From Methylococcus mesophilus (lineage in GTDB: Bacteria > Pseudomonadota > Gammaproteobacteria > Methylococcales > Methylococcaceae): DNA of 64,000 bases. The stretch's first letter is position 1, and each line of letters begins with the position of its first letter. The position numbers were made by a program, and so were the translations under genes. Positions 31,263 through 42,644 of this stretch are shown piece by piece. The notes under the pieces were generated by a model. That model ran no database searches. It was not told the DNA's origin and saw only the letters and a program-made list of their open reading frames with translations. The stretch is from the NCBI RefSeq assembly GCF_026247885.1, contig NZ_CP110921.1:1116001-1180000 (forward strand), given 5' to 3'.

Positions 31263-31281
31263 AACGAGAATTGTTCTCATT
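31263..31281. promoter_or_regulatory. Fur-box-like site upstream of the di-heme peroxidase gene
   Basis: AACGAGAATTGTTCTCATT is a 19-base near-palindrome (7 of 9 positions pair in each arm) around GAGAA and TTCTC, close to the usual AATGAGAATxATTCTC Fur pattern. It lies 31 bases upstream of the peroxidase ATG. It may also act on the leftward porin operon. Confidence 0.5.
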
Positions 31282-31312
31282 AATTACAGACGCAAGATCG
31301 GGGGAACCTGGA

Positions 31313-32485
31313 ATGAAATACCGTCGCACCCTTGCCGCAGGCATCTTCGGCCTGATCGCCTCCCACCCGGCTTTCTCGGACGATCTCGCACTGCCAGGCG
31401 GAAAGCACCTTTCCCTTAAGGCGCAACTCGGACAGAAGCTGTTCTTCGACACCAGCCTGTCCACGCCGCCCGGCCAGTCGTGCAGCAGTTGCCACGATCC
31501 CAACTCGGCATTTTCCGACCCGAACAAAAATCAACCGACCTCCAATGGCGTGCTGCCGACGCTGAAGGGCAACCGCAATGCGCCGACCGCGGCCTACGCC
31601 GCCTATACCCCGCCGTTCCACTACGACACCACGCTGCGCCTCTTTGTGGGGGGGCAGTTCCTGGACGGACGCGCATCGACGCTCAAGGACCAGGCCAAAG
31701 GGCCATTCCTCAATCCCGTGGAAATGGCCAATCCCGACAAACAGACCGTAGTGACCAAGGTCAGGGAGGCGGAATACGCCTGGATGTTCGACGAGGTCTT
31801 CGGACCCGGCTCGCTCGACAATACCCGCAAGGCCTACGACCGGATCGCCGCCGCGATCGCGGCATTCGAGCGATCTCCGGTATTCGCCAGATTCGATTCC
31901 AAGTACGACTACTACCTGAAGGGGAAAGTCAGGCTGACGCCGCAGGAAATGCGGGGGCTGGTGGTCTTCGAATCCGAAGAAAAAGGCAATTGCGCCGCCT
32001 GTCATCCGAGCACGCCGAGCGCGAACGGCACCCCGCCCTTGTTCACGGATCACACCTACGACAACCTCGGCGTGCCCAAGAACCCGGACAACCCGTTCTA
32101 CGCCCTCCCGTCGAAACTGAATCCCGATGGCCCCGCCTTCGTCGACCGGGGACTGGGTAAACAGGTGGGCAAGTTCTGGGAAGACGGAAAACTAAAGGTG
32201 CCGACGCTCCGCAACATCGCGGTCACGGCGCCCTACATGCACAACGGCTATTTCAGCACCCTGCGCTCCGTGGTGGATTTCTACAATACCCGGGACGTTC
32301 GCCCCACCTGCTGGAACGAACTCGTGACCGAAGCCGAAGCCGAGCGACTGGGCTGCTGGCCGGCGCCCGAGGTCAAACAGAACGTCAATGGCGACGAACT
32401 CGGCGATCTGGGCCTGAGCGACAGGGAAGTCGACGATCTGGTCGCTTTCCTCAAGACTCTGACCGACGGCTACCAGCCGGAATGA
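31313..32485 (+). CDS. Di-heme cytochrome c peroxidase / MauG-family protein
   Basis: A 390-residue periplasmic or surface protein with a signal peptide ending about residue 22. Two heme-attachment motifs are visible: C57-S-S-C-H61 and C227-A-A-C-H231, the pattern of bacterial CCP and MauG proteins. The usual FWDGR block reads FLDGR (residues 116-120), so the Trp is missing. The C-terminal half has the expected KVPTLRNIAVTAPYMHNGYF. The family reduces hydrogen peroxide or oxidises amino-acid side chains of partner proteins. GGGGAA precedes the ATG. A Fur-like site is just upstream. Confidence 0.88.
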   Translation: MKYRRTLAAGIFGLIASHPAFSDDLALPGGKHLSLKAQLGQKLFFDTSLSTPPGQSCSSCHDPNSAFSDPNKNQPTSNGVLPTLKGNRNAPTAAYAAYTPPFHYDTTLRLFVGGQFLDGRASTLKDQAKGPFLNPVEMANPDKQTVVTKVREAEYAWMFDEVFGPGSLDNTRKAYDRIAAAIAAFERSPVFARFDSKYDYYLKGKVRLTPQEMRGLVVFESEEKGNCAACHPSTPSANGTPPLFTDHTYDNLGVPKNPDNPFYALPSKLNPDGPAFVDRGLGKQVGKFWEDGKLKVPTLRNIAVTAPYMHNGYFSTLRSVVDFYNTRDVRPTCWNELVTEAEAERLGCWPAPEVKQNVNGDELGDLGLSDREVDDLVAFLKTLTDGYQPE

Positions 32486-32489
32486 AGGC

Positions 32490-33575
32490 TCAGGAGGGTT
32501 GCGCCGCAGGGATGTAGAAAAAGCCAATAGCGAGTATGCAGTAAACGCCGATCAGCAACAGACCCTCGAACCAGCTCGACTGGCCGTCTCGGACCAGGTC
32601 GCGTGTGACCACGACAGCGAGCATCACGGCGACGATCTCGAACTGGGAAAACAGGAGGTCCATGTCCTGTCCGATGAGCATGCTGAAGAACACCAAGACG
32701 GGCGCTACCAGCAGAGCGACCTGGGTGCTGGCACCGACGGTGACGCCCAGCGCCAGCTCCACTTGATTGGAGCGGGCGAACCGGATTGAATTGAAGGTTT
32801 CAGCCGCGTTGCCCACCATCGCCAGCAGGAAAACGCCGGCGAACAAGGGCGTCAATCCCATCGCATCGGCCGCCGGCTGGATCGCGTCCGTCATGATTTC
32901 GCTCATGACGCCCAGGGCGATGGTCACCACGGCGAGGACCGCGAGCGCTCGGTTCCTGCTCCATCCGAGCTCGCCGCCCAACGGCTCCGGCTCGGCCTTG
33001 CCTTTCTCTTCGAGCTCCTCGGCTGCCGCCGCGACACCGAAAACCGCCTTCTGGCTTCGCAGGGTCAGAATGATGCTGCCGCAGTACACGAAAAAGAGCA
33101 CGGCGGCGATATGGACGCTGATTTCCTCGTCGGAACTCGCGCTGAAATGAAACACGGCAGGGATGATCAGCGCGATCGCCGCCAGCATCAGCGAACCCGC
33201 GTTGCGGCGCGCCGTCTTGGAATCGAATTGCTGCTCGCCCCATTTCGCACCGCCGGCGAACAGAGACAAACCCAGCCCAAGCAACAGATTTCCGATGATG
33301 GAACCGGTCAACGAGGCCTTGACGACGTCGACCAACCCTTGATGAAGCGCGAACAGTCCCACGATGATTTCGGGCGCATTCCCGAGGGTCGCACTGAGCA
33401 AGCCTCCGTAAGTGGGCCCCAGGTAGCTCGCGAGCGATTCGGTAGCATCGCCCATCAGCGCCGCAAGCGGCACGATCGCCAAGGCAGAAGCCAGGAACAC
33501 CAGCGTCGGGTGGGCATCTCGCCAGTCCATGCCCAACGCAATCGGAATGAATACCAGCAACCAGTTCAGTCTCAC
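32490..33575 (-). CDS. CAX-family calcium/cation:proton antiporter
   Basis: A 361-residue inner-membrane exchanger with 10-11 helices and the two alpha-repeats of the CAX/ChaA family. Repeat 1 has TLGNAPEIIVGLFAL, and repeat 2 has MVGNAAETFNSI, keeping both acidic residues needed for cation binding; a short charged loop (EELEEKGKAEPEPLGG) joins the halves. It starts at GTG, since no ATG fits. It lies head-to-head with a paralogue at 33681, about 105 bases apart, as a divergent pair. The cation (Ca2+, Mn2+ or another) is not decided by sequence. Confidence 0.9.
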   Translation of the reverse strand: MRLNWLLVFIPIALGMDWRDAHPTLVFLASALAIVPLAALMGDATESLASYLGPTYGGLLSATLGNAPEIIVGLFALHQGLVDVVKASLTGSIIGNLLLGLGLSLFAGGAKWGEQQFDSKTARRNAGSLMLAAIALIIPAVFHFSASSDEEISVHIAAVLFFVYCGSIILTLRSQKAVFGVAAAAEELEEKGKAEPEPLGGELGWSRNRALAVLAVVTIALGVMSEIMTDAIQPAADAMGLTPLFAGVFLLAMVGNAAETFNSIRFARSNQVELALGVTVGASTQVALLVAPVLVFFSMLIGQDMDLLFSQFEIVAVMLAVVVTRDLVRDGQSSWFEGLLLIGVYCILAIGFFYIPAAQPS

Positions 33576-33680
33576 ATTCGGCTCCCAAGGCCCATGAAGA
33601 ATATCAATATCCGTTCAAAAAACTATCACGCTCGGTGACTATAATCGCGCGATTTGAAAAATAGCTGAATGAGGCCGCGG

Positions 33681-34748
33681 ATGAACCTGAATTGGCTGCT
33701 TGCGCTGATACCCGCGTCGGTCGCGCTCAACTGGGCCCATGCCGATCCGATCCTGGTTTTCCTCTGCTCCGCCCTTTCCATCGTTCCCCTGGCCGGCCTG
33801 ATGGAAAAAGCCACGGATGCCCTGTCCGACTATTTGGGGCCCACTTACGGCGGACTGTTGAACGCGACCATGGGCAACGCTCCCGAGCTCATCATCGGCG
33901 TTTCGGCCTTGCGCAATGGACTGATCGACATCCTCAAAGCCTCTATCGCGGGCTCGATCATGGGCACCCTGCTGTTCGGCATGGGCCTTTCCCTCCTTGC
34001 CGGCGGGCTGCGCAAGCCCCGCCAGAGCTTCGACAGCGAGATGGTCTCGGTCAATGGCGCGCTGCTGATGCTCGGAACCTTCGGGCTCGTGATACCCGCA
34101 GTGTTCAAGTTCGGAGCCAAGCCCGACCAGGAAATCAGCCTGGAAATCTCCATCGTCCTGTTCGTGGTTTACCTCGCCAGCATGGTCTTCACCCTGATCA
34201 CGCACCGGCCGGCGGTCGGCGCCCTCGCGGTAAAAGCAGAGCTGCAGGAAAAAGGAGACGCCGCGAAGACGGAAAAACCGGCGTGGAACCCCAAGACCGC
34301 CTTTTGGATACTCGGCGGGGTGGCCGTCCTCCTGGCGGTCGTGAGCGATGCGCTGACCGACTCCATCGACGACGCAGCGGACGCCATCGGCCTCACTCCC
34401 GTGTTTGCCGGTGTGTTTCTACTCTCCATCGTCGGCAATGTGGCCCAGTTCATGAATTCGACCTCATTCGCCTACCGGAACCAGATGACCCTGGCCCTGT
34501 CGGTCAACCTCGGCGCGACGACCCAACTGGTGCTGCTGGTCGCTCCGGTGCTGGTCATCGCCGGCAATCTCATGGGCATGAGCATGGACCTGCTGTTCAC
34601 CCAGTTCGAACTCGTCGGCATCATCCTGTCGGTGACGGTCGCCCGGAACCTCCTGAGCGACCATACCTCGACCTGGCTCGAAGGCGTGATGTTGATCGGA
34701 GTCTACATGATGCTCGGCATCGGTTTTTTTTATGCACCTTCGCCCTGA
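33681..34748 (+). CDS. CAX-family paralogue with altered second cation motif
   Basis: A 355-residue paralogue of the neighbouring exchanger and read the opposite way. Repeat 1 is intact (TMGNAPELIIGVSAL). Repeat 2 reads G252-N-V-A-Q256-F, so the Glu of the GNAAE motif is Gln; this residue binds cation or proton in known CAX proteins. It may therefore be non-transporting, altered in coupling, or a regulatory partner of the intact copy. The start is at MNLNWLLAL. The following gene is 250 bases away. Confidence 0.88.
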   Translation: MNLNWLLALIPASVALNWAHADPILVFLCSALSIVPLAGLMEKATDALSDYLGPTYGGLLNATMGNAPELIIGVSALRNGLIDILKASIAGSIMGTLLFGMGLSLLAGGLRKPRQSFDSEMVSVNGALLMLGTFGLVIPAVFKFGAKPDQEISLEISIVLFVVYLASMVFTLITHRPAVGALAVKAELQEKGDAAKTEKPAWNPKTAFWILGGVAVLLAVVSDALTDSIDDAADAIGLTPVFAGVFLLSIVGNVAQFMNSTSFAYRNQMTLALSVNLGATTQLVLLVAPVLVIAGNLMGMSMDLLFTQFELVGIILSVTVARNLLSDHTSTWLEGVMLIGVYMMLGIGFFYAPSP

Positions 34749-34997: not shown

Positions 34998-35339
34998 ATG
35001 GCAGATCAAACCGCGAACAGTACCAGCACCGATGCCGGCGAGGCCGAAGCCCTGAAATCAATCTCGGACGCGATGCGTGACGCCGTCCAGAACGCGACGG
35101 AAGACGCCGCAAAGGTGAGAGAGAAGCTGGCCGGCATGGACGTAGGACGCTCGCTGTCGCGCTTTGCCTACACCAGCTCCTACATGGTTTCCTACGGCAT
35201 CGTTTACGGCACTGTCTTCATCGCCCGCGCCATTCCCCAGGACAACCCCATCGTCGAGGGATTCGTCGATGGCAGCCGCGCCGCTATCGATGCGCTGAAC
35301 GAAGCCAAGGAAGCGCAAGCACCCGTTTCCGGCGCCTGA
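34998..35339 (+). CDS. Small membrane-associated protein of the P-type ATPase locus
   Basis: A 113-residue protein. Residues 1-50 are acidic and helical (GEAEALKSISDAMRDAVQ). One amphipathic or membrane helix follows about 55-80 (AYTSSYMVSYGIVYGTVFIA), then an acidic helix. No family recognised. AAGGGAG lies ten bases before ATG 34998; an in-frame ATG at 34968 lacks such a site. It heads the run of co-directional genes leading to the P-type ATPases and may be a small subunit or regulator. Confidence 0.68.
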   Translation: MADQTANSTSTDAGEAEALKSISDAMRDAVQNATEDAAKVREKLAGMDVGRSLSRFAYTSSYMVSYGIVYGTVFIARAIPQDNPIVEGFVDGSRAAIDALNEAKEAQAPVSGA

Positions 35340-35426
35340 GCCGCGATGCCGGCCACGGGGCGGGATGACGCCCCTTTGTAAAAGGAATCATCGGAAATTC
35401 TCATCGATCAATCAGGACAGTTGATA

Positions 35427-38060
35427 ATGCCCCAGCTCGCTTCCAACCCCAGCGCTCAGAAACTCTCCGGATCCAGTTGCATCACCGTCTCGTTTCCCGC
35501 GCCCGGAACCATTGCAATCCACGGTCAGGAAATGTTCGGCAATCCGGATACACCAGTCTGCCGAGCTTTCTTACGGCGGGTATTCCTGGTACCGGAAATC
35601 CGGGGAGCGACGATCAAGGCAGCACCGGCCTGTTGCGCCGAACTGCATTTCGACACGAAGCGTCATGCTGCGAAAGAAGTGCTGTGGCGGGTGGCGGACT
35701 GCCTGGTGGAAGACGGCGCCGCTCCGGCGGAGGGCGAAGCCGCTCCGGTTATTGCGCCGATGATTACCGCGCGCGACCGTCACGGTGTCGTGCATTACCA
35801 TCGCTTCGGCAAGCGGGTCACCGGCTGGCAGGTCGTAAGCGACCACACCGGTTCGATCAGGCTGAAGAACCCCGTTCTGTACCGCAAGAATAATCTCTGC
35901 CAGGCCATCGAGCGGGAGCTGATGAGCATCCTGGGGGTCGACCGCTACAAGACGCACTCGCTGCGATGCACAGTACAGATCGACTACGATCCGCGCCGTC
36001 TGAGTCAGGCGAATCTCATCGAGATACTCGACAGTGCCCTGGAAACTGCAGAGCACCAGGAAGAACTCGACAAACTCGATCTCGACCTGACCATCTGCAC
36101 CCTGTCCATTCCCCTCGCGGCGACAGCCCAATTCGCGGTTCCCGCCCTGCTTCCGGTGTCCGCAGCGGTATTCGCCTACACCTCGATCCCCTGCTTCCAG
36201 GGAGCCTACGAACTCATCTTCAAGGAAAAGCGGATCGGCTGCGACTTCTTGGATTCGATCGTCGTGCTCGGCTGCCTGGGCACCTTGCAGATCCTGCCCG
36301 GCGCGGTGCTCGCCTGGTGCCTGTCGTTCGGCCGGCTGTTGGTCAAGAAGACCGAAGACAACTCCAAGAAGATGCTGCTGAACGCTTTCGGCAAACAGCC
36401 TCGTTATGTCTGGCTGGTCAAGGACGGCGTAGAGATCGAGGTGCCCATGGACAAGGTCGAGAAGGGCGACATCGTTGCCGTCCACACCGGCGATACCGTG
36501 CCGGTGGACGGCCACATCGTCGAAGGCATGGCGATGATCGACCAGCACGCGCTGACCGGCGAATCCACCCCCGCCGAAAAAGGTGTGGGGGACAGGGTCT
36601 TCGCCTCCACCATCATGGTGGCCGGCAAGATTTTCGTCTCGGTCGAGCAATCGGGCAGCGAAACGGCCTCCTCGAAGATCAGCCAGATATTGAACGATAC
36701 CGCGGGCTATAAGCTCTCCTCCCAGAACCGGGGAGAAAAGCTGGCGGATCAGGCAGCCGTTCCGACCCTGGTGGTGGGCGGCCTCGCGATGGCGGCCATC
36801 GGACCGGGCGGCGCAGTCGCCGCCCTGAACAGCGACCTCGGCACCGGCATCCGGATGGCGGCGCCGCTGGCCCTGTTGTCCTCCCTGGCCCTGTGTGCGC
36901 AAAAGGGCATCCTGGTCAAGGACGGCCGGGCGCTGGAACTCATGGGCAAGATCGACACCGTGTTGTTCGACAAGACCGGCACCCTGACACGCGAGTGCCC
37001 GGAGGTCGGCCGCGTCATCACGGCGAACGGCTTCGCCGAAAGCGAGGTGCTGATGTATGCCGCCGCCGCGGAACAGAAATTCCATCACCCCATCGCCCTG
37101 GCTATCCTGAACAAGGCGGAGGAATGGGGGATTGGGCTGCCGGCGACCGACGAAACCCAGTACAAGGTGGGCTATGGCATCGACGTCGGCGTGAACGGCC
37201 GGCGAATCCGGGTCGGCAGCCCCCGCTTCATGGAGATGGAGGGCATCGCGCTGACCCCGGAAATCAAGGAAGCGCTCGATGCCGCCCATCTCGAAGGCTA
37301 CACGATGGTGATGGTCGCGATCGGCGACCGGATGGGTGGGGCGCTGGAACTCCGGGCCGCGGTCCGCCCCGAAGTGAAGGAAATCGTCGCCGGCCTGCGC
37401 TCACGCGGCGTCAAGCATCTGGCCATCATTTCCGGCGACCATGAAGCACCCACGCGCAAACTGGCCGAGGAACTCGGCATGGACCGCTATTTCGCCCAGG
37501 TCTTGCCGGCAGACAAGGCCGATTACGTGGAAAAGCTGCAGCAGGAAGGCCGCATGGTCTGCTTCGTGGGCGACGGGATCAACGACTCGATCGCGCTGAA
37601 GAAGGCCAACGTGTCGATCTCGCTGCGGGGCGCCACCTCCATCGCCACGGATACCGCCCACATCGTGTTTCTCGAGCAGGGCCTGGGCAAGCTCTGCGAA
37701 CTGCGGGACATCTCCCGGGAGCTGGAGCGCAATATCGCGCGCAGTTGGGCTATGATCATCGCCCCCAACGTTGCCTGCGTCCTCGGCGTGTTCACCCTGG
37801 GCTTCGGCGTGGCAGCCTCCGTTTTCACCAATAACGTCGCGGCGCTCGCGGCGCTCGCCAACGGCCTGCTGCCCATGCGGAAGGTCGCCCTTCTGGAAGC
37901 CGAACGGCGCCATCAGATCGAACTCGAACTGAAGCGCGCGGGCTGTGCTAATGTAGATCGGTCTGGAATCCATGAAACCGCCACCGCAGCGGAAAGTGTC
38001 GACGCGACGGCGGAAATCGACGATGCCGACGACGGCAGACGGAGCGCGCTGGCGGCCTAG
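35427..38060 (+). CDS. P1B-like P-type ATPase lacking the CPC metal-site motif
   Basis: An 877-residue P-type ATPase. Residues about 115-215 form an HMA-like fold without a CxxC metal-binding pair (GSIRLKNPVL ... CTVQIDYDP). The catalytic core is complete: T377-G-E-S380 (actuator), D515-K-T-G-T (phosphorylation site), the His-Pro block HHPIALAI (nucleotide site), and G715-D-G-I-N-D720 (hinge). The helix that normally carries CPC reads L471-G-T473, followed by GIRMAAPLALLSS, so the usual metal-coordinating Cys pair is absent. The C-terminus is acidic and Ala-rich. It should pump an ion across the inner membrane with ATP, but the ion is unclear. It lies in one run with a degenerate homologue at 38957. 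ATG 35427 follows AGGA. Confidence 0.88.
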   Translation: MPQLASNPSAQKLSGSSCITVSFPAPGTIAIHGQEMFGNPDTPVCRAFLRRVFLVPEIRGATIKAAPACCAELHFDTKRHAAKEVLWRVADCLVEDGAAPAEGEAAPVIAPMITARDRHGVVHYHRFGKRVTGWQVVSDHTGSIRLKNPVLYRKNNLCQAIERELMSILGVDRYKTHSLRCTVQIDYDPRRLSQANLIEILDSALETAEHQEELDKLDLDLTICTLSIPLAATAQFAVPALLPVSAAVFAYTSIPCFQGAYELIFKEKRIGCDFLDSIVVLGCLGTLQILPGAVLAWCLSFGRLLVKKTEDNSKKMLLNAFGKQPRYVWLVKDGVEIEVPMDKVEKGDIVAVHTGDTVPVDGHIVEGMAMIDQHALTGESTPAEKGVGDRVFASTIMVAGKIFVSVEQSGSETASSKISQILNDTAGYKLSSQNRGEKLADQAAVPTLVVGGLAMAAIGPGGAVAALNSDLGTGIRMAAPLALLSSLALCAQKGILVKDGRALELMGKIDTVLFDKTGTLTRECPEVGRVITANGFAESEVLMYAAAAEQKFHHPIALAILNKAEEWGIGLPATDETQYKVGYGIDVGVNGRRIRVGSPRFMEMEGIALTPEIKEALDAAHLEGYTMVMVAIGDRMGGALELRAAVRPEVKEIVAGLRSRGVKHLAIISGDHEAPTRKLAEELGMDRYFAQVLPADKADYVEKLQQEGRMVCFVGDGINDSIALKKANVSISLRGATSIATDTAHIVFLEQGLGKLCELRDISRELERNIARSWAMIIAPNVACVLGVFTLGFGVAASVFTNNVAALAALANGLLPMRKVALLEAERRHQIELELKRAGCANVDRSGIHETATAAESVDATAEIDDADDGRRSALAA

Positions 38061-38153
38061 CGATCCGGTTCCGGCGCTCGTGCCGCCTCACCCATGCAGC
38101 GGCATCCGCGCTCTCGCTCTCATGCTTCGGAAATCTCCAACAGAGGATTGCCC

Positions 38154-38675
38154 ATGTCCGAACCAAACACACCCGCATCCCGCGGACGCAGAAGCAAACC
38201 GGTACACGCCGCGGCCTCGGAAAGCGCAGGCGGCCGGCCGGCTCCCAGATTTCGCATATTCATCGTGGATACCGGCTGGACCTCCCCCGCCGCTCAGGTG
38301 ATCCGGGACAATTTCGAGATGATCCGCTCATTCCAGGACGGCGACCCGCTCTACGTGCTTTCCCCGGAACAGTCCCGAGACATCGTCAAGCGGCATCCGC
38401 AGTTCATCGGAAAGGATCCTGTCCTCATCGTCCGCGACATGCATCGGTCCGGTCCGCGCGACGGCGGCGAATACCACGGATTCCATCTCAATCTGGGACT
38501 GATCCAAAAGCCCGTGCGGGCGCTGCACGCTCTGCAGGAATTCCTGCGCTTTCTGAACCTGCATCACGACAGCCCCAATATCGAGCGGGACATCAAGGAC
38601 AGGCTGCACAAAGACGGGTTCATCGGTACGATCGAGGTGATCCGCGAGGGTGCCAAGGACGCCATGGGCGCCTGA
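38154..38675 (+). CDS. Hypothetical protein between the two P-type ATPase homologues
   Basis: A 173-residue soluble protein without signal or membrane segments. The core RIFIVDTGWTSPAAQVIRDN is followed by YVLSPEQSRDIVKRHP and PVLIVRDMHRS, an alternating strand-helix pattern that suggests a small alpha/beta domain. I do not recognise a family. AGAGGA lies six bases before the ATG. Its fixed place between an active and a degenerate pump suggests a cytoplasmic subunit or assembly factor, which is inference. Confidence 0.7.
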   Translation: MSEPNTPASRGRRSKPVHAAASESAGGRPAPRFRIFIVDTGWTSPAAQVIRDNFEMIRSFQDGDPLYVLSPEQSRDIVKRHPQFIGKDPVLIVRDMHRSGPRDGGEYHGFHLNLGLIQKPVRALHALQEFLRFLNLHHDSPNIERDIKDRLHKDGFIGTIEVIREGAKDAMGA

Positions 38676-38726
38676 CGGAAACGTTCGACCCGCATTTTCA
38701 CTACACCGAAACCGGAGGATAGACGC

Positions 38727-38918
38727 ATGGAACAGGTGACGAACGCACTGACCACCGCCCTGGCGGCCGTTTTTCTATCGGCCATGATCATCGAAGTCCG
38801 GCGCCGCCAGAAGCAGTTGCAGGAGCTATACAACGTCCTCGATGAGCAGGATAAGCAGATCGTCGTGGAACTCGACCGCATGGTCGAGCTCGGCGAAATC
38901 GAGCCCTACGCCGATTAG
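38727..38918 (+). CDS. Small single-helix membrane protein (63 residues)
   Basis: Residues 6-22 (NALTTALAAVFLSAMII) form one membrane helix. After basic EVRRRQKQ comes an amphipathic acidic tail (LDEQDKQIVVELDRMVELG). GGAGG precedes the ATG. The size and layout resemble small subunits or scaffolds that sit with membrane pumps. It lies between the two P-type ATPase homologues, 38 bases before the second. Confidence 0.72.
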   Translation: MEQVTNALTTALAAVFLSAMIIEVRRRQKQLQELYNVLDEQDKQIVVELDRMVELGEIEPYAD

Positions 38919-38956
38919 CCGCATCTCAAACCAACAGCCCGACAAAAGACTGGTGT

Positions 38957-41317
38957 ATGGCCGATAGCATCACGTTCGGTTCCAACTGGCTGCGCATCGA
39001 GGACGACTCGGTCTTTGGCCCCGGCCGCGCAAGGATTGCCCGCCGTTTTGCCCGGCAGGTCCTGGCCCTCCCGGAAGTCGAATCACTCGACCTGGCGCCG
39101 TCCCAAGGCAGGGCGCTCATAAGGCACCGCACCGCGAAAGGCGACCTTAGCGCATTCCGCCAACGTCTGGCCGCCGCCGTGGGCCCCGATAACGAAGGAC
39201 TGGACGACCGCGATTTGCCGCATTGGCCGGTGGATTCCTCGCTGACGCTGCATCGGCACGAGGGCTTGATTTCGCTGTTCCGGATCGAAGCTGTCGATGA
39301 CGGCTGGCTGGAATTGCGTCATCCCCGCCTGAAGGGAAATTCCCGGCTCCTCCGAAACATCGAAACCGGGCTGGGCGCACTCGATGCCGTCAGGCGGGTC
39401 TCCGGCAACGCCGCTTCCGGATCCATCCGGATACGTTATGACGCCGAGTCGGCAGAACCGTTGATCCTTGCGCGCTTGGCCGAGGGGCTGCTGACGGGTC
39501 AAGTGGCATCGCGTGTTCCCGAACCCGCGACAGTGGACTTCCGGGTCGCCAATGCCGGCATCGGACTCGGCGCCGTTGGGGAATTGATGCTGCCGCTTGC
39601 GACGCCGGTCGCGGCGGGCCTGCTGGTCGCGAGCAATCTCAAGGTCTTGCAGGATGCGGGCAAGCAGATCGGCCGCGGAAAACTGGGCGTGCCGGTGTTT
39701 CACACCGCCCTGCTCGCCTGCTCGATCGCCACCGGCCAGGTTCTCGCCTACGCCCTGACCGAATGGTCTCTGCGCTACTGGCAGCGGAACTGGCGGAAAA
39801 ATCTGGCATGGGAAACCCATGCGCTCCTCGAGGACACCCTGCCACTTCCGGCACAGACCGTCCTGCTGGATACCGATGGAAGCGAGTCTCTGATCGCCGT
39901 GGCCGATTTGCGCGCCGGCGACCGCGTCAAAGTCCCGGCATCGGAAGCCATCCCGGTCGACGGGGTCATCGTCGCCGGCCAGGCCCTTGTCCAGGAAACC
40001 AGCCTCCGCGGAAGCCGGGGCCTGGTGCGGAAAATCCCCGGCGACGAAGTCTTCGCCGGAACCGTCGTCATCAACGGCTCCCTGGAAATCGAAACCGTCC
40101 GCACCGGACCGGACACACGGGCGGCCGGGCTTACGAGATCCGTTCTCGAAACCGCCACACTGATACCCTCCGACCGGGCCATGCGGCGCGAAGCCGAAGA
40201 CTTGGCGGAACGGACGGTGCTCCCCACGTTGGCCACCGCCGGCGTCGGCTGGGCCGCGGGCGACCTGATCACGGTCGGTGCCATCCTGCACCAGGACTGG
40301 GTCAGCGGACCCGGTATGGCTCTGCCGATGCAGGCACTCCGGGACATGCGCCTGGCCCTGCACAGCGGTGCCCTGCTCAAATCGGCTTCGGCCCTCGCCC
40401 GCCTGAAGGACAGCGACTTCCTGGTGATCGACGGCGATCTGCCCGGCCTTCTCAGTCCGCAACTCGAACTGACCGAAGTGGCCAGCCAACTACCGGACAC
40501 TGACACGATCCTGCGGCATGCCGCTGGCGCCGGACTCTTCCTCGGCGACGAGCGCGCGGAGGCGTTGGCCCAAACCTGCCTCCAGCGTGGGCTGGTCGTC
40601 CGCGAGCCGGAACTGCTGTCCCTGGAGGCCAATGCGGTGGAGGTGCGGATCGGCCGCCATACCGTCAGCCTGGTCGGCGATCCCAGCCGTTCCACGACGG
40701 CTCCGGCGCCATTGCTGATGCGCATTGACGGCGCCGACGTCGCCGAGCTGCGGTTCGCTTACTCACCCCTGCCTCGCGCGGCCCATACTCTCGCCCGTCT
40801 CCACGCGCTCGGCATGCAGCAGATATTCGTCGTCTCGTCCCGTCCCGACGCTGAAGCCGCCGAACTCGCGCGGCGCCTCGGCGCCGATCTTTCCGGCGGC
40901 GGACTGAACGCGGAGCAGAAGATCCGCTTTCTCCAGGGGCTGAAAAAACGGGGCGTGCGCGCCGCGCTGATCGGCGACTTCGGCAGGGATCCGGATGCTG
41001 CGGGCGAAGCCCATGTCGCCGTCGCGTTCGGAAGCCGGGCAGCTGACGGCGGCCCCTGCGACATCGCGATCCTGGGCGAGTCGCTCGATCCCCTCGTCGA
41101 TTTGATGGAGCTGGCCCGTGGCCACGACGCCAACGTCGTTTCGGCCTGCCGCATGGCGGCGATCCCGAATCTGCTGTGCATCGCCGGCGCCTTCGCCGGC
41201 CTGCTCAACGGCATCACTTCCGGAATCATCGCCAACATCGGCGTCATGAACGTCGACCGCCGCATGCGGCGAGACCTGCAGGCGGCAAGAACCCGCCGCG
41301 TTCCGGTTCTGCGCTGA
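38957..41317 (+). CDS. Degenerate P-type ATPase homologue (predicted inactive)
   Basis: A 786-residue protein that aligns along its whole length with P1B-type ATPases and with the neighbour at 35427, but the catalytic motifs are lost. The phosphorylation site DKTGTLT reads D492-G-D-L-P-G (the Asp remains, Lys-Thr-Gly-Thr is gone). TGES reads R351-G-S-R354. GDGxND reads G673-D-F-G-R-D678. The N-terminal HMA-like domain (about 105-180) also lacks CxxC. The reading frame is intact over 2.3 kb, so selection has kept it as a non-pumping protein, probably a subunit or regulator of the active pump. The ATG has no strong ribosome site. Confidence 0.85.
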   Translation: MADSITFGSNWLRIEDDSVFGPGRARIARRFARQVLALPEVESLDLAPSQGRALIRHRTAKGDLSAFRQRLAAAVGPDNEGLDDRDLPHWPVDSSLTLHRHEGLISLFRIEAVDDGWLELRHPRLKGNSRLLRNIETGLGALDAVRRVSGNAASGSIRIRYDAESAEPLILARLAEGLLTGQVASRVPEPATVDFRVANAGIGLGAVGELMLPLATPVAAGLLVASNLKVLQDAGKQIGRGKLGVPVFHTALLACSIATGQVLAYALTEWSLRYWQRNWRKNLAWETHALLEDTLPLPAQTVLLDTDGSESLIAVADLRAGDRVKVPASEAIPVDGVIVAGQALVQETSLRGSRGLVRKIPGDEVFAGTVVINGSLEIETVRTGPDTRAAGLTRSVLETATLIPSDRAMRREAEDLAERTVLPTLATAGVGWAAGDLITVGAILHQDWVSGPGMALPMQALRDMRLALHSGALLKSASALARLKDSDFLVIDGDLPGLLSPQLELTEVASQLPDTDTILRHAAGAGLFLGDERAEALAQTCLQRGLVVREPELLSLEANAVEVRIGRHTVSLVGDPSRSTTAPAPLLMRIDGADVAELRFAYSPLPRAAHTLARLHALGMQQIFVVSSRPDAEAAELARRLGADLSGGGLNAEQKIRFLQGLKKRGVRAALIGDFGRDPDAAGEAHVAVAFGSRAADGGPCDIAILGESLDPLVDLMELARGHDANVVSACRMAAIPNLLCIAGAFAGLLNGITSGIIANIGVMNVDRRMRRDLQAARTRRVPVLR

Positions 41318-41375
41318 CCCGTTTTTCGGCGGGGGAAGCAGGCCGCCTCCTCCCCGCCCCGTCTTGCGGACACGC

Positions 41376-42164
41376 ATGAAACACCTCATCCCAGCCGAAC
41401 CGCCGAGCCATTACGAGGCGGAACAGATCCGGGCCATCGCCGCCTGGAAACGGCGCAAGCCTCATCTGGCGAGCCCGCTCCTGAACCGCGCGCAACGGCC
41501 GCTGGTCCGGCTGAGCCGGAAGATCGTACCCGCCCCCGCCTCGCGATTCGCACTCGACGCCCTCAACGGAGTCGCCGAACAACTGGTACGGGACGATTGG
41601 ATCCTGCGCCACAGCGGATTCCGCAGCCTGGAAGAAATCGGCGCGCAATCGCTGGAATTCAGCGACCGCCTGGCCGACAAGGTCATCGAAGAAGGACTCA
41701 AGCTCGCCACCGGGGTGGGAGCGGTGACCGGCACCGGCAGCCTGGGTACCGTCGTGGTGGGCGTTCCGGCATTGCTGGGCGTGGCCCTGCGCCTGATCCA
41801 CCGCGTATCCCAGGCTTACGGCTATTCCACGGAGTGTACGGGCGACCGCAGCTTCATGCTGCACATCCTGGCGCTGTCCACCGCCAGCACATCCGAGGAA
41901 CAGTCGCGCGCCATGGAGAACTATCATTGGCAGCTCGAGCATCACCTCGTCGGCGACGCCGTGAACGATGCGGCGCTGGCAGTGCTGCAGCGGATCGTGC
42001 TCGGCCGCAAGCTCGCATCGTTCGTTCCCGGCCTGTCCGTTGTGCTCAATGCCTACGCCAATCGGTCCTTCAGCCGGCGCGCCGGCCTCGCCGCCAAACG
42101 CGTTTACCAGGAACGCTGGCTGCTCGATCACGGCAGGATCCCAGGCTGGATCGTGCCTGCGTGA
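41376..42164 (+). CDS. EcsC-family protein
   Basis: A 262-residue protein from MKHLIPAE. The EcsC domain covers roughly residues 40-240, with the hydrophobic Gly-rich stretch GAVTGTGSLGTVVVGVPALL followed by VALRLIHRVSQAYGYSTE, which is the family signature. EcsC-type proteins are associated with membranes and ABC or other transporters, with unclear biochemical role. A TTG in frame at 41364 is possible but ATG 41376 fits better. It follows the degenerate ATPase by 58 bases. Confidence 0.82.
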   Translation: MKHLIPAEPPSHYEAEQIRAIAAWKRRKPHLASPLLNRAQRPLVRLSRKIVPAPASRFALDALNGVAEQLVRDDWILRHSGFRSLEEIGAQSLEFSDRLADKVIEEGLKLATGVGAVTGTGSLGTVVVGVPALLGVALRLIHRVSQAYGYSTECTGDRSFMLHILALSTASTSEEQSRAMENYHWQLEHHLVGDAVNDAALAVLQRIVLGRKLASFVPGLSVVLNAYANRSFSRRAGLAAKRVYQERWLLDHGRIPGWIVPA

Positions 42165-42224
42165 GTCCGGGTTGAGCGGTGCCGGCTGCGGAATGTAACA
42201 TGCTGGGCTCAACCTTCAAGCCGT

Positions 42225-42644
42225 ATGAACATGACCGAAACTCCCCACTCCGGACGCAAATCCCCAAGGCCGCGTAGCAAGCCTGGCGCCGCCCCGGCCC
42301 CATCCGAACCCCGCGGACGGGAGGCGGGCGAGGCGTCCCTCGAAAAGAGCCTCGAGACGCTGGATGCCCTCGCCATCGAACAGAAAACCGAACAGCGGAT
42401 ACGCCGCATGCCGCATGATGTGGCCTGGCTGCTGATCACCGCCGGCGTCGTCGGGCTGGTCACGCCAGGCGTGCTGGGCCTGCCTTTCCTCGCCATGGGC
42501 GGATTGGTATTGTGGCCCGGCAGCAGCACGCGCCTCGAACATTGGCTTAACGGGCGGCCGCCGCGGCTGCTGAAAGGCAGCATGAAACAGATAGGCCGTT
42601 TTCTCGACGACCTGGAACGACGCTACCCGCCATCCGCCCGCTAA
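42225..42644 (+). CDS. Small two-helix membrane protein ending the ATPase run
   Basis: A 139-residue protein. Residues 1-60 are charged and Pro-rich. Two adjoining hydrophobic segments (VAWLLITAGVVGLVTPGVLG and FLAMGGLVLWPG, about 66-99) follow, and the C-terminus reads GRFLDDLERRYP. A similar layout occurs in small membrane proteins of other Proteobacteria, but I know no function. ATG 42225 and ATG 42231 are both possible. It is followed by rlmJ, which I take as a separate unit. Confidence 0.72.
   Translation: MNMTETPHSGRKSPRPRSKPGAAPAPSEPRGREAGEASLEKSLETLDALAIEQKTEQRIRRMPHDVAWLLITAGVVGLVTPGVLGLPFLAMGGLVLWPGSSTRLEHWLNGRPPRLLKGSMKQIGRFLDDLERRYPPSAR

What the first reader, a model, noticed from the sequence alone, without database searches (positions are those of the whole stretch)
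34998..42644. Seven-gene locus pairing an active-looking P-type ATPase with a catalytically dead homologue
Seen directly: two P-type ATPase homologues in one co-directional run, with a 113-residue protein, a 173-residue protein, a 63-residue single-helix protein, an EcsC-family protein and a 139-residue two-helix protein. The first pump keeps TGES, DKTGT and GDGIND. The second has lost all three as working motifs (RGSR, DGDLPG, GDFGRD) but is an intact 786-codon frame. Known: P-type ATPases mostly act as single catalytic chains with at most small subunits, so a full-length inactive homologue beside the active one would be a new arrangement. Inference: the dead copy is a structural or regulatory subunit. 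The set also recalls fez (ferrosome) clusters, which encode a P1B-6 ATPase, HMA-like proteins and small hydrophobic proteins; that link is a guess.
Basis: partly seen in the sequence, partly recalled or inferred. Interest (0 to 1): 0.87.

Follow-up and report, generated by a model that had tools for sequence, protein, structure and literature searches.

The report
Ion pump paired with silent twin
In some methane-eating bacteria and a few planctomycetes, the gene of a working ion pump is often followed by a full-length copy that has lost its ATP-splitting parts but kept key residues of its membrane part, which suggests a two-part pump not described before.

Summary
Seven co-directional genes (34998-42644) include an intact P1B-type ATPase and an intact 786-codon homologue without working motifs. 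The silent copy is not decaying: it is open in 6 of 6 Methylococcus genomes (median dN/dS 0.28), and 20 copies from Methylococcaceae and Planctomycetota form one group (100/100). The order g1-pump-g3-g4-silent recurs in both phyla. Over 61 genomes pump and silent copy co-occur in 17 (pump only 1, silent only 3, neither 40). In 30 silent copies the TGE glutamate, KTGT and HP histidine are lost in 30; the pump's M4 Asp and M5 Asn are kept in 30, its M6 Asn in 28. Selection is strongest in the membrane helices.

Cax calcium/proton exchanger genes lie within 4 kb of 16 of 31 clusters, pointing to Ca2+ or another divalent cation; but a Cys in M5 is also conserved. Ferrosome membership is not supported, though FezB itself could not be compared.

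Best reading: a P1B-like pump without CPC works with a non-hydrolysing pseudo-ATPase that keeps the membrane site. Functional partnership is well supported; physical complex, ion and direction are inferred. Pumps without it and orphan silent copies show it is not obligatory.

The parts
32490..33575 (-). Cax calcium/proton exchanger (upstream neighbour, recurrent)
   Evidence: PF01699 E 2e-40; TIGR00378 cax 329 bits, cut-off 211
33669..34748 (+). Second Cax calcium/proton exchanger, directly upstream
   Evidence: PF01699 E 1e-30; TIGR00378 cax 291 bits
34998..35339 (+). g1: 113-aa protein, Glu/Ala-rich N-terminal part then a hydrophobic segment; compared with PacL
   Evidence: family; no Pfam family over its cut-off for the window protein; weak GroEL C-terminus similarity E 0.0017
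35421..38060 (+). g2: pump, P1B-type ATPase with intact TGES, DKTGT, SGD and GDGIND and without CPC
   Evidence: TIGR01525 403 bits; motifs kept in 23 of 23 pump rows
36834..36836 (+). pump M4 Asp472 codon in N-S-D-L-G-T-G-I-R-M-A-A-P, in the region of the usual CPC
   Evidence: 23 of 23 pumps; alignment
36969..36971 (+). pump phosphorylated Asp517 codon of DKTGT
38154..38675 (+). g3: 173-aa protein, thioredoxin-fold-like, without redox Cys pair
38727..38918 (+). g4: 63-aa protein with N-terminal hydrophobic stretch and charged tail
38957..41317 (+). g5: silent full-length pseudo-P-type ATPase
40295..40297 (+). silent copy M4 Asp447 codon (LHQDW), aligned with pump Asp472
   Evidence: 30 of 30 silent copies
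41379..42164 (+). g6: EcsC-family protein
   Evidence: PF12787 E 5e-44
42225..42644 (+). g7: 139-aa protein with hydrophobic segments, DUF454-like
   Evidence: weak in the window protein (E 0.008, below cut-off); DUF454 in 12 of 16 family members at E<=1, best 2e-6

Best explanation
The locus encodes a membrane ion-transport complex built on two related P1B-type chains. The pump hydrolyses ATP in the usual way, but its M4 carries Asp where other P1B pumps carry CPC; with conserved M5 Asn and M6 Asn this suggests a harder divalent cation, Ca2+ first, although a conserved M5 Cys leaves a transition metal possible. The silent homologue is unlikely to complete the phosphorylation cycle. It keeps the membrane domain and these site residues and acts as a non-hydrolysing partner: it binds the same ion, and holds, gates or regulates the pump. 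Small proteins g1 and g4 are membrane scaffolds or anchors; g3, EcsC and g7 are accessory. Neighbouring Cax exchangers give an H+-coupled route for the same ion. Shown here: conservation, synteny, co-occurrence, selection and residue pattern. Inferred: physical complex, ion, direction and the roles of the small proteins.
For: Order g1-pump-g3-g4-silent in 6 of 6 Methylococcus genomes and in Planctomycetota L075, L078 and L085; L079, L080 and L082 keep pump-silent. Co-occurrence in 61 genomes 17/1/3/40, Fisher p 4e-11 without correction for kinship; by genus within the family 7/0/1/7, p 0.0014. 20 silent copies are one side of a branch, 100/100. Median dN/dS 0.276 over 15 pairs and no stops; lowest in MA-M2 (0.107), M5-M6 (0.162) and M3-M4 (0.170), highest in the A domain (0.403). 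M4 Asp and M5 Asn in 30 of 30, M6 Asn in 28 of 30 silent copies and all three in 23 of 23 pumps; M4 Asp in 0 of 9 other P1B relatives without CPC. Pump and silent frames, taken from their first possible starts, overlap in L079 and L082. Cax in 16 of 31 clusters and 0 of 5 orphan silent loci.
Against: Pumps occur without a silent copy in the stretch seen (L052, L086, L113, L114, L115) and none was detected in G036. Orphan silent copies exist (L039, L050, L051, L060, L062). Cax is absent from 15 of 31 clusters, 5 of them with at least 3 kb on both sides. A Cys is conserved in M5 of both chains (21 of 23 pumps, 29 of 30 silent) and one in an earlier helix of 23 of 23 pumps, and two of 16 pumps have Cys beside the M4 Asp: this speaks for a transition metal. 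The pump passes a heavy-metal family model. Cax proteins can carry other cations (recalled). Ion and interaction are untested. The tree position of the silent clade varies.
Confidence: 0.52

Rival explanations
1. The silent copy is an independent ion-binding sensor or passive channel that shares the ion and the regulation but does not assemble with the pump.
For: Orphan silent copies lie away from any family pump, e.g. own genome L039:13354-15693 among unrelated genes; kept membrane residues.
Against: Synteny with the pump in two phyla.
Confidence: 0.22
2. The silent copy keeps a divergent hydrolase or autophosphorylation activity using the remaining Asp.
For: The nucleophile column holds D in 26 of 30 and the P-domain Lys column K in 20 of 30; the window copy also keeps both Asp columns of GDGxND.
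Against: K, T, G and T after the Asp, the TGE Glu and the HP His are lost in 30 of 30; the first Asp of GDGxND is kept in 10 of 30 and the second in 3 of 30.
Confidence: 0.07
3. The locus is a ferrosome (fez) type iron-storage cluster.
Against: No DUF4405 match in own genome, the model ringing in 5 of 14 controls, 3 over its cut-off, though FezC is only DUF4405-like (passages); no DUF6110 hit for g1; no HN in M6; Cax neighbours.
Confidence: 0.08
4. The silent copy is a duplicate on its way to loss.
For: Its dN/dS is about three times that of the pump (median 0.276 against 0.098).
Against: Open in 6 of 6 genomes with dN/dS well below 1; one group across two phyla; membrane helices at 0.107 to 0.170.
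Confidence: 0.02
5. As the best reading, but the pump moves a transition metal (Mn, Co, Ni, Cd, Fe), and the Cax genes belong to general cation handling.
For: TIGR01525 is a heavy-metal family and the pump passes its cut-off; weak HMA_2 matches, below cut-off; conserved Cys in M5 of both chains.
Against: No CPC, SPC or similar in M4; no conserved CxxC in the N-terminal part (alignment); Cax neighbours in both phyla.
Confidence: 0.33

Closest known systems
P1B-type ATPases (CopA, ZntA)
   Same: Fold and domain order; pump above the TIGR01525 cut-off; silent copy model closest to CopA 7r0g
   Different: No CPx motif in M4 (N-S/C/A-D-x-G-T-G); a full-length silent homologue in the same gene cluster
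P1B-6 ATPases / FezB of ferrosomes
   Same: P1B pump with small membrane partners; passages imply that P1B-6 lack CPC
   Different: No HN in M6 and no DUF6110 hit; no DUF4405 in the genome; FezB itself not compared
PacL-CtpC metal efflux platforms of mycobacteria
   Same: Small membrane protein with a Glu/Ala-rich part beside a P1B pump; weak GroEL C-terminus similarity of g1 as reported for PacL1 (passages of PMC9374683)
   Different: No DUF1490 hit, no C-terminal His/Asp metal motif in g1, plus a silent ATPase and a thioredoxin-like protein
KdpFABC
   Same: P-type ATPase that needs further full subunits (start of abstracts in the listing)
   Different: KdpA is channel-like, not an ATPase homologue
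Alveolate guanylate cyclases fused to P4-ATPase domains
   Same: A P-type ATPase fold with degenerate motifs exists (PfGCbeta; passages of PMC6592433)
   Different: A fused domain in eukaryotes, not a separate chain beside its active homologue

Membership tests
P1B-type ATPase (pump) | NCBIfam TIGR01525 above cut-off and DKTGT/TGES/GDGxND | tested here: met
   403 bits against 346.25; motifs in 23 of 23
P1B-type ATPase (pump) | CPx-type motif in M4 | tested here: not met
   N-S/C/A-D-x-G-T-G-I-R-M-A-A-P in 16 of 16 pump rows
P-type ATPase fold (silent copy) | A, P, N and membrane domains | tested here: met
Active P-type ATPase (silent copy) | TGE Glu, DKTGT, GDGxND, HP | tested here: not met
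   0 of 30 keep the Glu, KTGT or the HP His; nucleophile column D in 26 of 30; GDGxND Asps in 10 and 3 of 30
P1B-6 / FezB | HN motif in M6 | tested here: not met
   N804-N805 in 23 of 23 pumps, no HN in M6; feature from passages of PMC9374683
P1B-6 / FezB | co-encoded DUF6110 protein | tested here: inconclusive
   none of 15 g1 members hits DUF6110; the genome search had no positive control
P1B-6 / FezB | placement with FezB sequences in a tree | not tested
   no named FezB sequence was reachable
Ferrosome fez cluster | FezC-type (DUF4405-like) cytochrome | tested here: inconclusive
   PF14358 0 matches in own genome, rings in 5 of 14 controls; whether PF14358 sees FezC itself is unknown, and C. 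difficile is described with FezA and FezB only
Ferrosome fez cluster | membrane-bounded iron granules | not testable with these tools
   needs microscopy
PacL | DUF1490 domain | tested here: not met
   no hit among 15 g1 members
PacL | C-terminal His/Asp metal-binding motif | tested here: not met
   C-terminus of g1 in the alignment
Cax calcium/proton exchanger (neighbours) | TIGR00378 equivalog above cut-off | tested here: met
   4 of 4 tested, 291 to 374 bits against 211
Thioredoxin (g3) | thioredoxin fold | tested here: inconclusive
Thioredoxin (g3) | CxxC redox pair | tested here: not met
   no conserved Cys in 16 members; Gly-Trp invariant near that place

The most novel reading that the evidence does not exclude
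A heteromeric P-type ATPase: an active P1B chain with Asp in place of CPC in M4 pumps Ca2+ (or Mn2+) together with an obligate silent twin that keeps the same membrane ion site. With Cax exchangers and small scaffold proteins it loads a calcium store, possibly on the intracytoplasmic membranes that methanotrophs and planctomycetes are known for (recalled). It would be the first P-type pump known to use a full-length pseudo-ATPase subunit.
Probability: 0.2. Interest if true: 0.92.

Novelty: new variant of a known kind. Interest (0 to 1): 0.73.

Why it matters
P-type ATPases are textbook pumps with one catalytic chain. A conserved full-length silent partner that has lost ATP chemistry but kept membrane-site residues would add a second-chain layer to them and offers a natural separation of ion binding from hydrolysis. 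The M4 Asp in a P1B fold with calcium exchangers next door in about half of the clusters would also extend P1B pumps towards hard cations. Both are directly testable in a cultured, harmless methanotroph.

Tried and rejected
Ferrosome reading: tested by DUF4405, DUF6110 and the M6 motif; not supported, not excluded. FezB could not be compared because no named FezB sequence was reachable, and the primary papers (PMC10906721, PMC10822667) are not held. The P1B classification paper PMC4119550 is not held either.

Decay of the silent copy: rejected.

Plasmid-borne copies: tblastn of the silent protein against 72,556 plasmids found 3674 records, none with one place covering 80% of the query; the 30 listed look like generic ATPases. 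The pump's best plasmid relative is on Methylobacterium radiotolerans pMRAD05 (46% over 77%).

Distribution limits: the genome-contig scan used two peptide patterns, so distant members can be missed. In the Planctomycetota sample at most 3 candidates per genome were scored, and 1 of 294 genomes, the centre itself, passed E 1e-100. In Gammaproteobacteria at most 4 were scored, and 2 of 229 passed, both Methylococcus. The seven planctomycete genomes were chosen because they carry a locus.

Cax count: 31 cluster loci and 5 orphan loci that I held; L063-L065, L067-L071, L074, L076 and L077 were left out as the same contigs under other ids, and L081, L083 and L084 were not scanned.

g3 fold: thioredoxin-like matches are below the level that stands out. 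A parallel with calsequestrin came to mind but rests on nothing tested.

Promoter and terminator scan: 0 promoter-like sites, 13 terminator-like sites against 8.4 expected; nothing usable.

Literature: the searches showed no report of a silent P-type ATPase subunit beside its active homologue; only listed rows were seen (20 of 97), and the library lacks most subscription journals.

The residual Asps of the window copy raised the hydrolase rival from 0.06 to 0.07, and the weaker DUF4405 test raised the ferrosome rival from 0.07 to 0.08.
Full report
WHAT IS THERE. The window lies at G000:C1:1116001-1180000 of a 4.34-Mb genome. Its genus is Methylococcus by inference: the 'same genus' genomes G001 and G004 hold contigs whose length and place match records named Methylococcus sp. 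STC_26 and M. capsulatus Texas. The seven frames are confirmed. Gaps between them are 38 to 93 bases, all on the plus strand, consistent with one operon; no promoter or terminator call is usable. Two divergent Cax genes precede them.

NOT DECAY. Among six Methylococcus genomes the silent gene has no stop and a median dN/dS of 0.276 (15 pairs); pump 0.098, g1 0.095, g3 0.099, g4 0.080, EcsC 0.194 (10 pairs, G003 left out because its gene is broken), g7 0.201. Within the silent protein the ratio is 0.107 in MA-M2, 0.170 in M3-M4 and 0.162 in M5-M6, against 0.403 in the A domain, 0.266 in P plus N, and 0.363 and 0.325 in the two front domains. Selection therefore guards the membrane part most.

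DISTRIBUTION. In 61 genomes (own plus 60 relatives) the family pump (over 1300 bits) and the silent copy (over 500 bits) occur together in 17, pump only in 1 (G036), silent only in 3 (G013, G015, G035), neither in 40; Fisher p 4e-11, kinship not removed. By genus within the family it is 7/0/1/7, p 0.0014. In the three silent-only genomes the contig ends on the pump side. A scan of one genome for each of 84,980 species, with two peptide patterns, gave 23 loci, from Methylococcaceae genera or MAGs, a Gammaproteobacteria MAG and Planctomycetota. My profiles find the silent frame in 22 of the 23 (not L084, whose match is a pump), and pump plus silent frame together in 15 of 23; in four more (L065, L069, L073, L083) the contig starts inside the cluster, and L076, L077 and L081 show the silent frame alone. 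Several of these loci are the same contigs as the unnamed G handles. In Planctomycetota the order is g1-pump-g3-g4-silent-g7-g7-EcsC-g1 in L075, g1-pump-g3-g4-silent in L078, g1-pump-g3-g4-silent-g7-g1 in L085, and pump-silent without detected g3/g4 in L079, L080 and L082. In samples the family is rare: 1 of 294 Planctomycetota (the centre itself) and 2 of 229 Gammaproteobacteria genomes, with few candidates scored per genome.

EXCEPTIONS. Pumps with no silent frame in the stretch seen: L052 (G010), L086 (M. radiotolerans plasmid, no second place on the record), L113 (G036), L114 (G022) and L115 (G027); G010, G022 and G027 have silent copies elsewhere. Silent copies without the pump: L039, L050, L051, L060 and L062. 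L057 holds two silent frames side by side. So partnership is common but not obligatory.

ORIGIN. In a 54-row tree the 20 silent copies are one side of a branch at 100/100 and the 16 pumps at 94/86. Whether the silent group is nearest to the pump (24 rows, 96/94) or lies outside pump plus the other P1B ATPases without CPC (54 rows, 81/66) is not settled: holding pump with those relatives is not rejected (AU p 0.164). The shared M4 Asp favours pump plus silent copy.

CALCIUM LINK. Cax genes (TIGR00378 over its cut-off in 4 of 4 tested; PF01699 in 6 of 6 tested) lie within 4 kb of 16 of 31 cluster loci: 6 of 6 Methylococcus and 10 of 25 others, on differing sides and strands, in both phyla. They lie in 0 of 5 orphan silent loci. 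Of the 15 loci without one, 10 have less than 3 kb of sequence on at least one side and 5 (L052, L053, L061, L075, L085) have 3 kb or more on both. In seven genomes chosen because their cluster has a Cax, the whole genome holds 1 to 6 Cax genes; G245 has one, and it is the neighbour. This, with Asp where CPC would be, makes Ca2+ or a similar cation the first guess. The conserved M5 Cys and the heavy-metal family match speak the other way; the ion is open.

SMALL PARTNERS. g3 models like a thioredoxin without the Cys pair (suggestive). g1 resembles PacL in make-up only: no DUF1490 or DUF6110 hit and no metal motif; the weak GroEL C-terminus match (E 0.0017) echoes what passages of PMC9374683 report for PacL1. 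g7 belongs to a DUF454-like family. Some clusters add a DUF454 protein, in L075 fused to an HMA domain.

MECHANISM, AND WHAT IS INFERRED. A two-chain complex with one catalytic and one silent ATPase sharing an ion type is the simplest account of synteny, co-occurrence, selection on the membrane part and retained site residues. That the chains touch, which ion they carry, and the direction of transport are inference.

LITERATURE. Search listings; passages seen in PMC12574912, PMC10979944, PMC12748827, PMC9374683, PMC4932525, PMC6592433, PMC13043812 and PMC517821. No passage seen describes this locus or a silent P-type ATPase subunit beside its active homologue. The nearest precedent seen is a degenerate P4-ATPase domain fused to a guanylate cyclase.

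Noticed in passing
L039:13354-15693 (G000:C1:1603353-1605692): An orphan silent P-type ATPase paralogue (about 45% identical) in the same genome, among genes that read like argC, aroC and pheT (names recalled).
   Followed up: partly
L045:11683-12098: In Methylococcus genome G003 the EcsC gene between silent ATPase and g7 is cut down to about 400 bases.
   Followed up: yes
L046:11941-12443: In G004 (M. capsulatus Texas) one of the two upstream Cax genes appears only as short frames while the other is intact.
   Followed up: no
L108-L112, L116, L117, L120: Related genomes carry further P1B-type ATPases without CPC and without the M4 Asp; their ions are unclear.
   Followed up: partly
L057:1658-5246: Two silent ATPase frames side by side in one contig of G013.
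   Followed up: no
L049:8254-9773: The g3-g4 pair is duplicated within the cluster.
   Followed up: no
L075:13977-15113, L058:7112-8200, L085:13913-14737: A recurrent neighbour with DUF454, in L075 fused to an HMA domain.
   Followed up: partly
L113:3383-5710: G036 has a pump whose match is interrupted by a TGA, next to a Cax gene and with no silent copy detected.
   Followed up: partly
L086:7197-10133: Methylobacterium radiotolerans plasmid pMRAD05 carries a pump relative preceded by a weak g1-like frame (31 bits).
   Followed up: partly
window 31271-32485: An open frame with two CxxCH haem motifs that reads like a dihaem cytochrome c peroxidase (name recalled).
   Followed up: no
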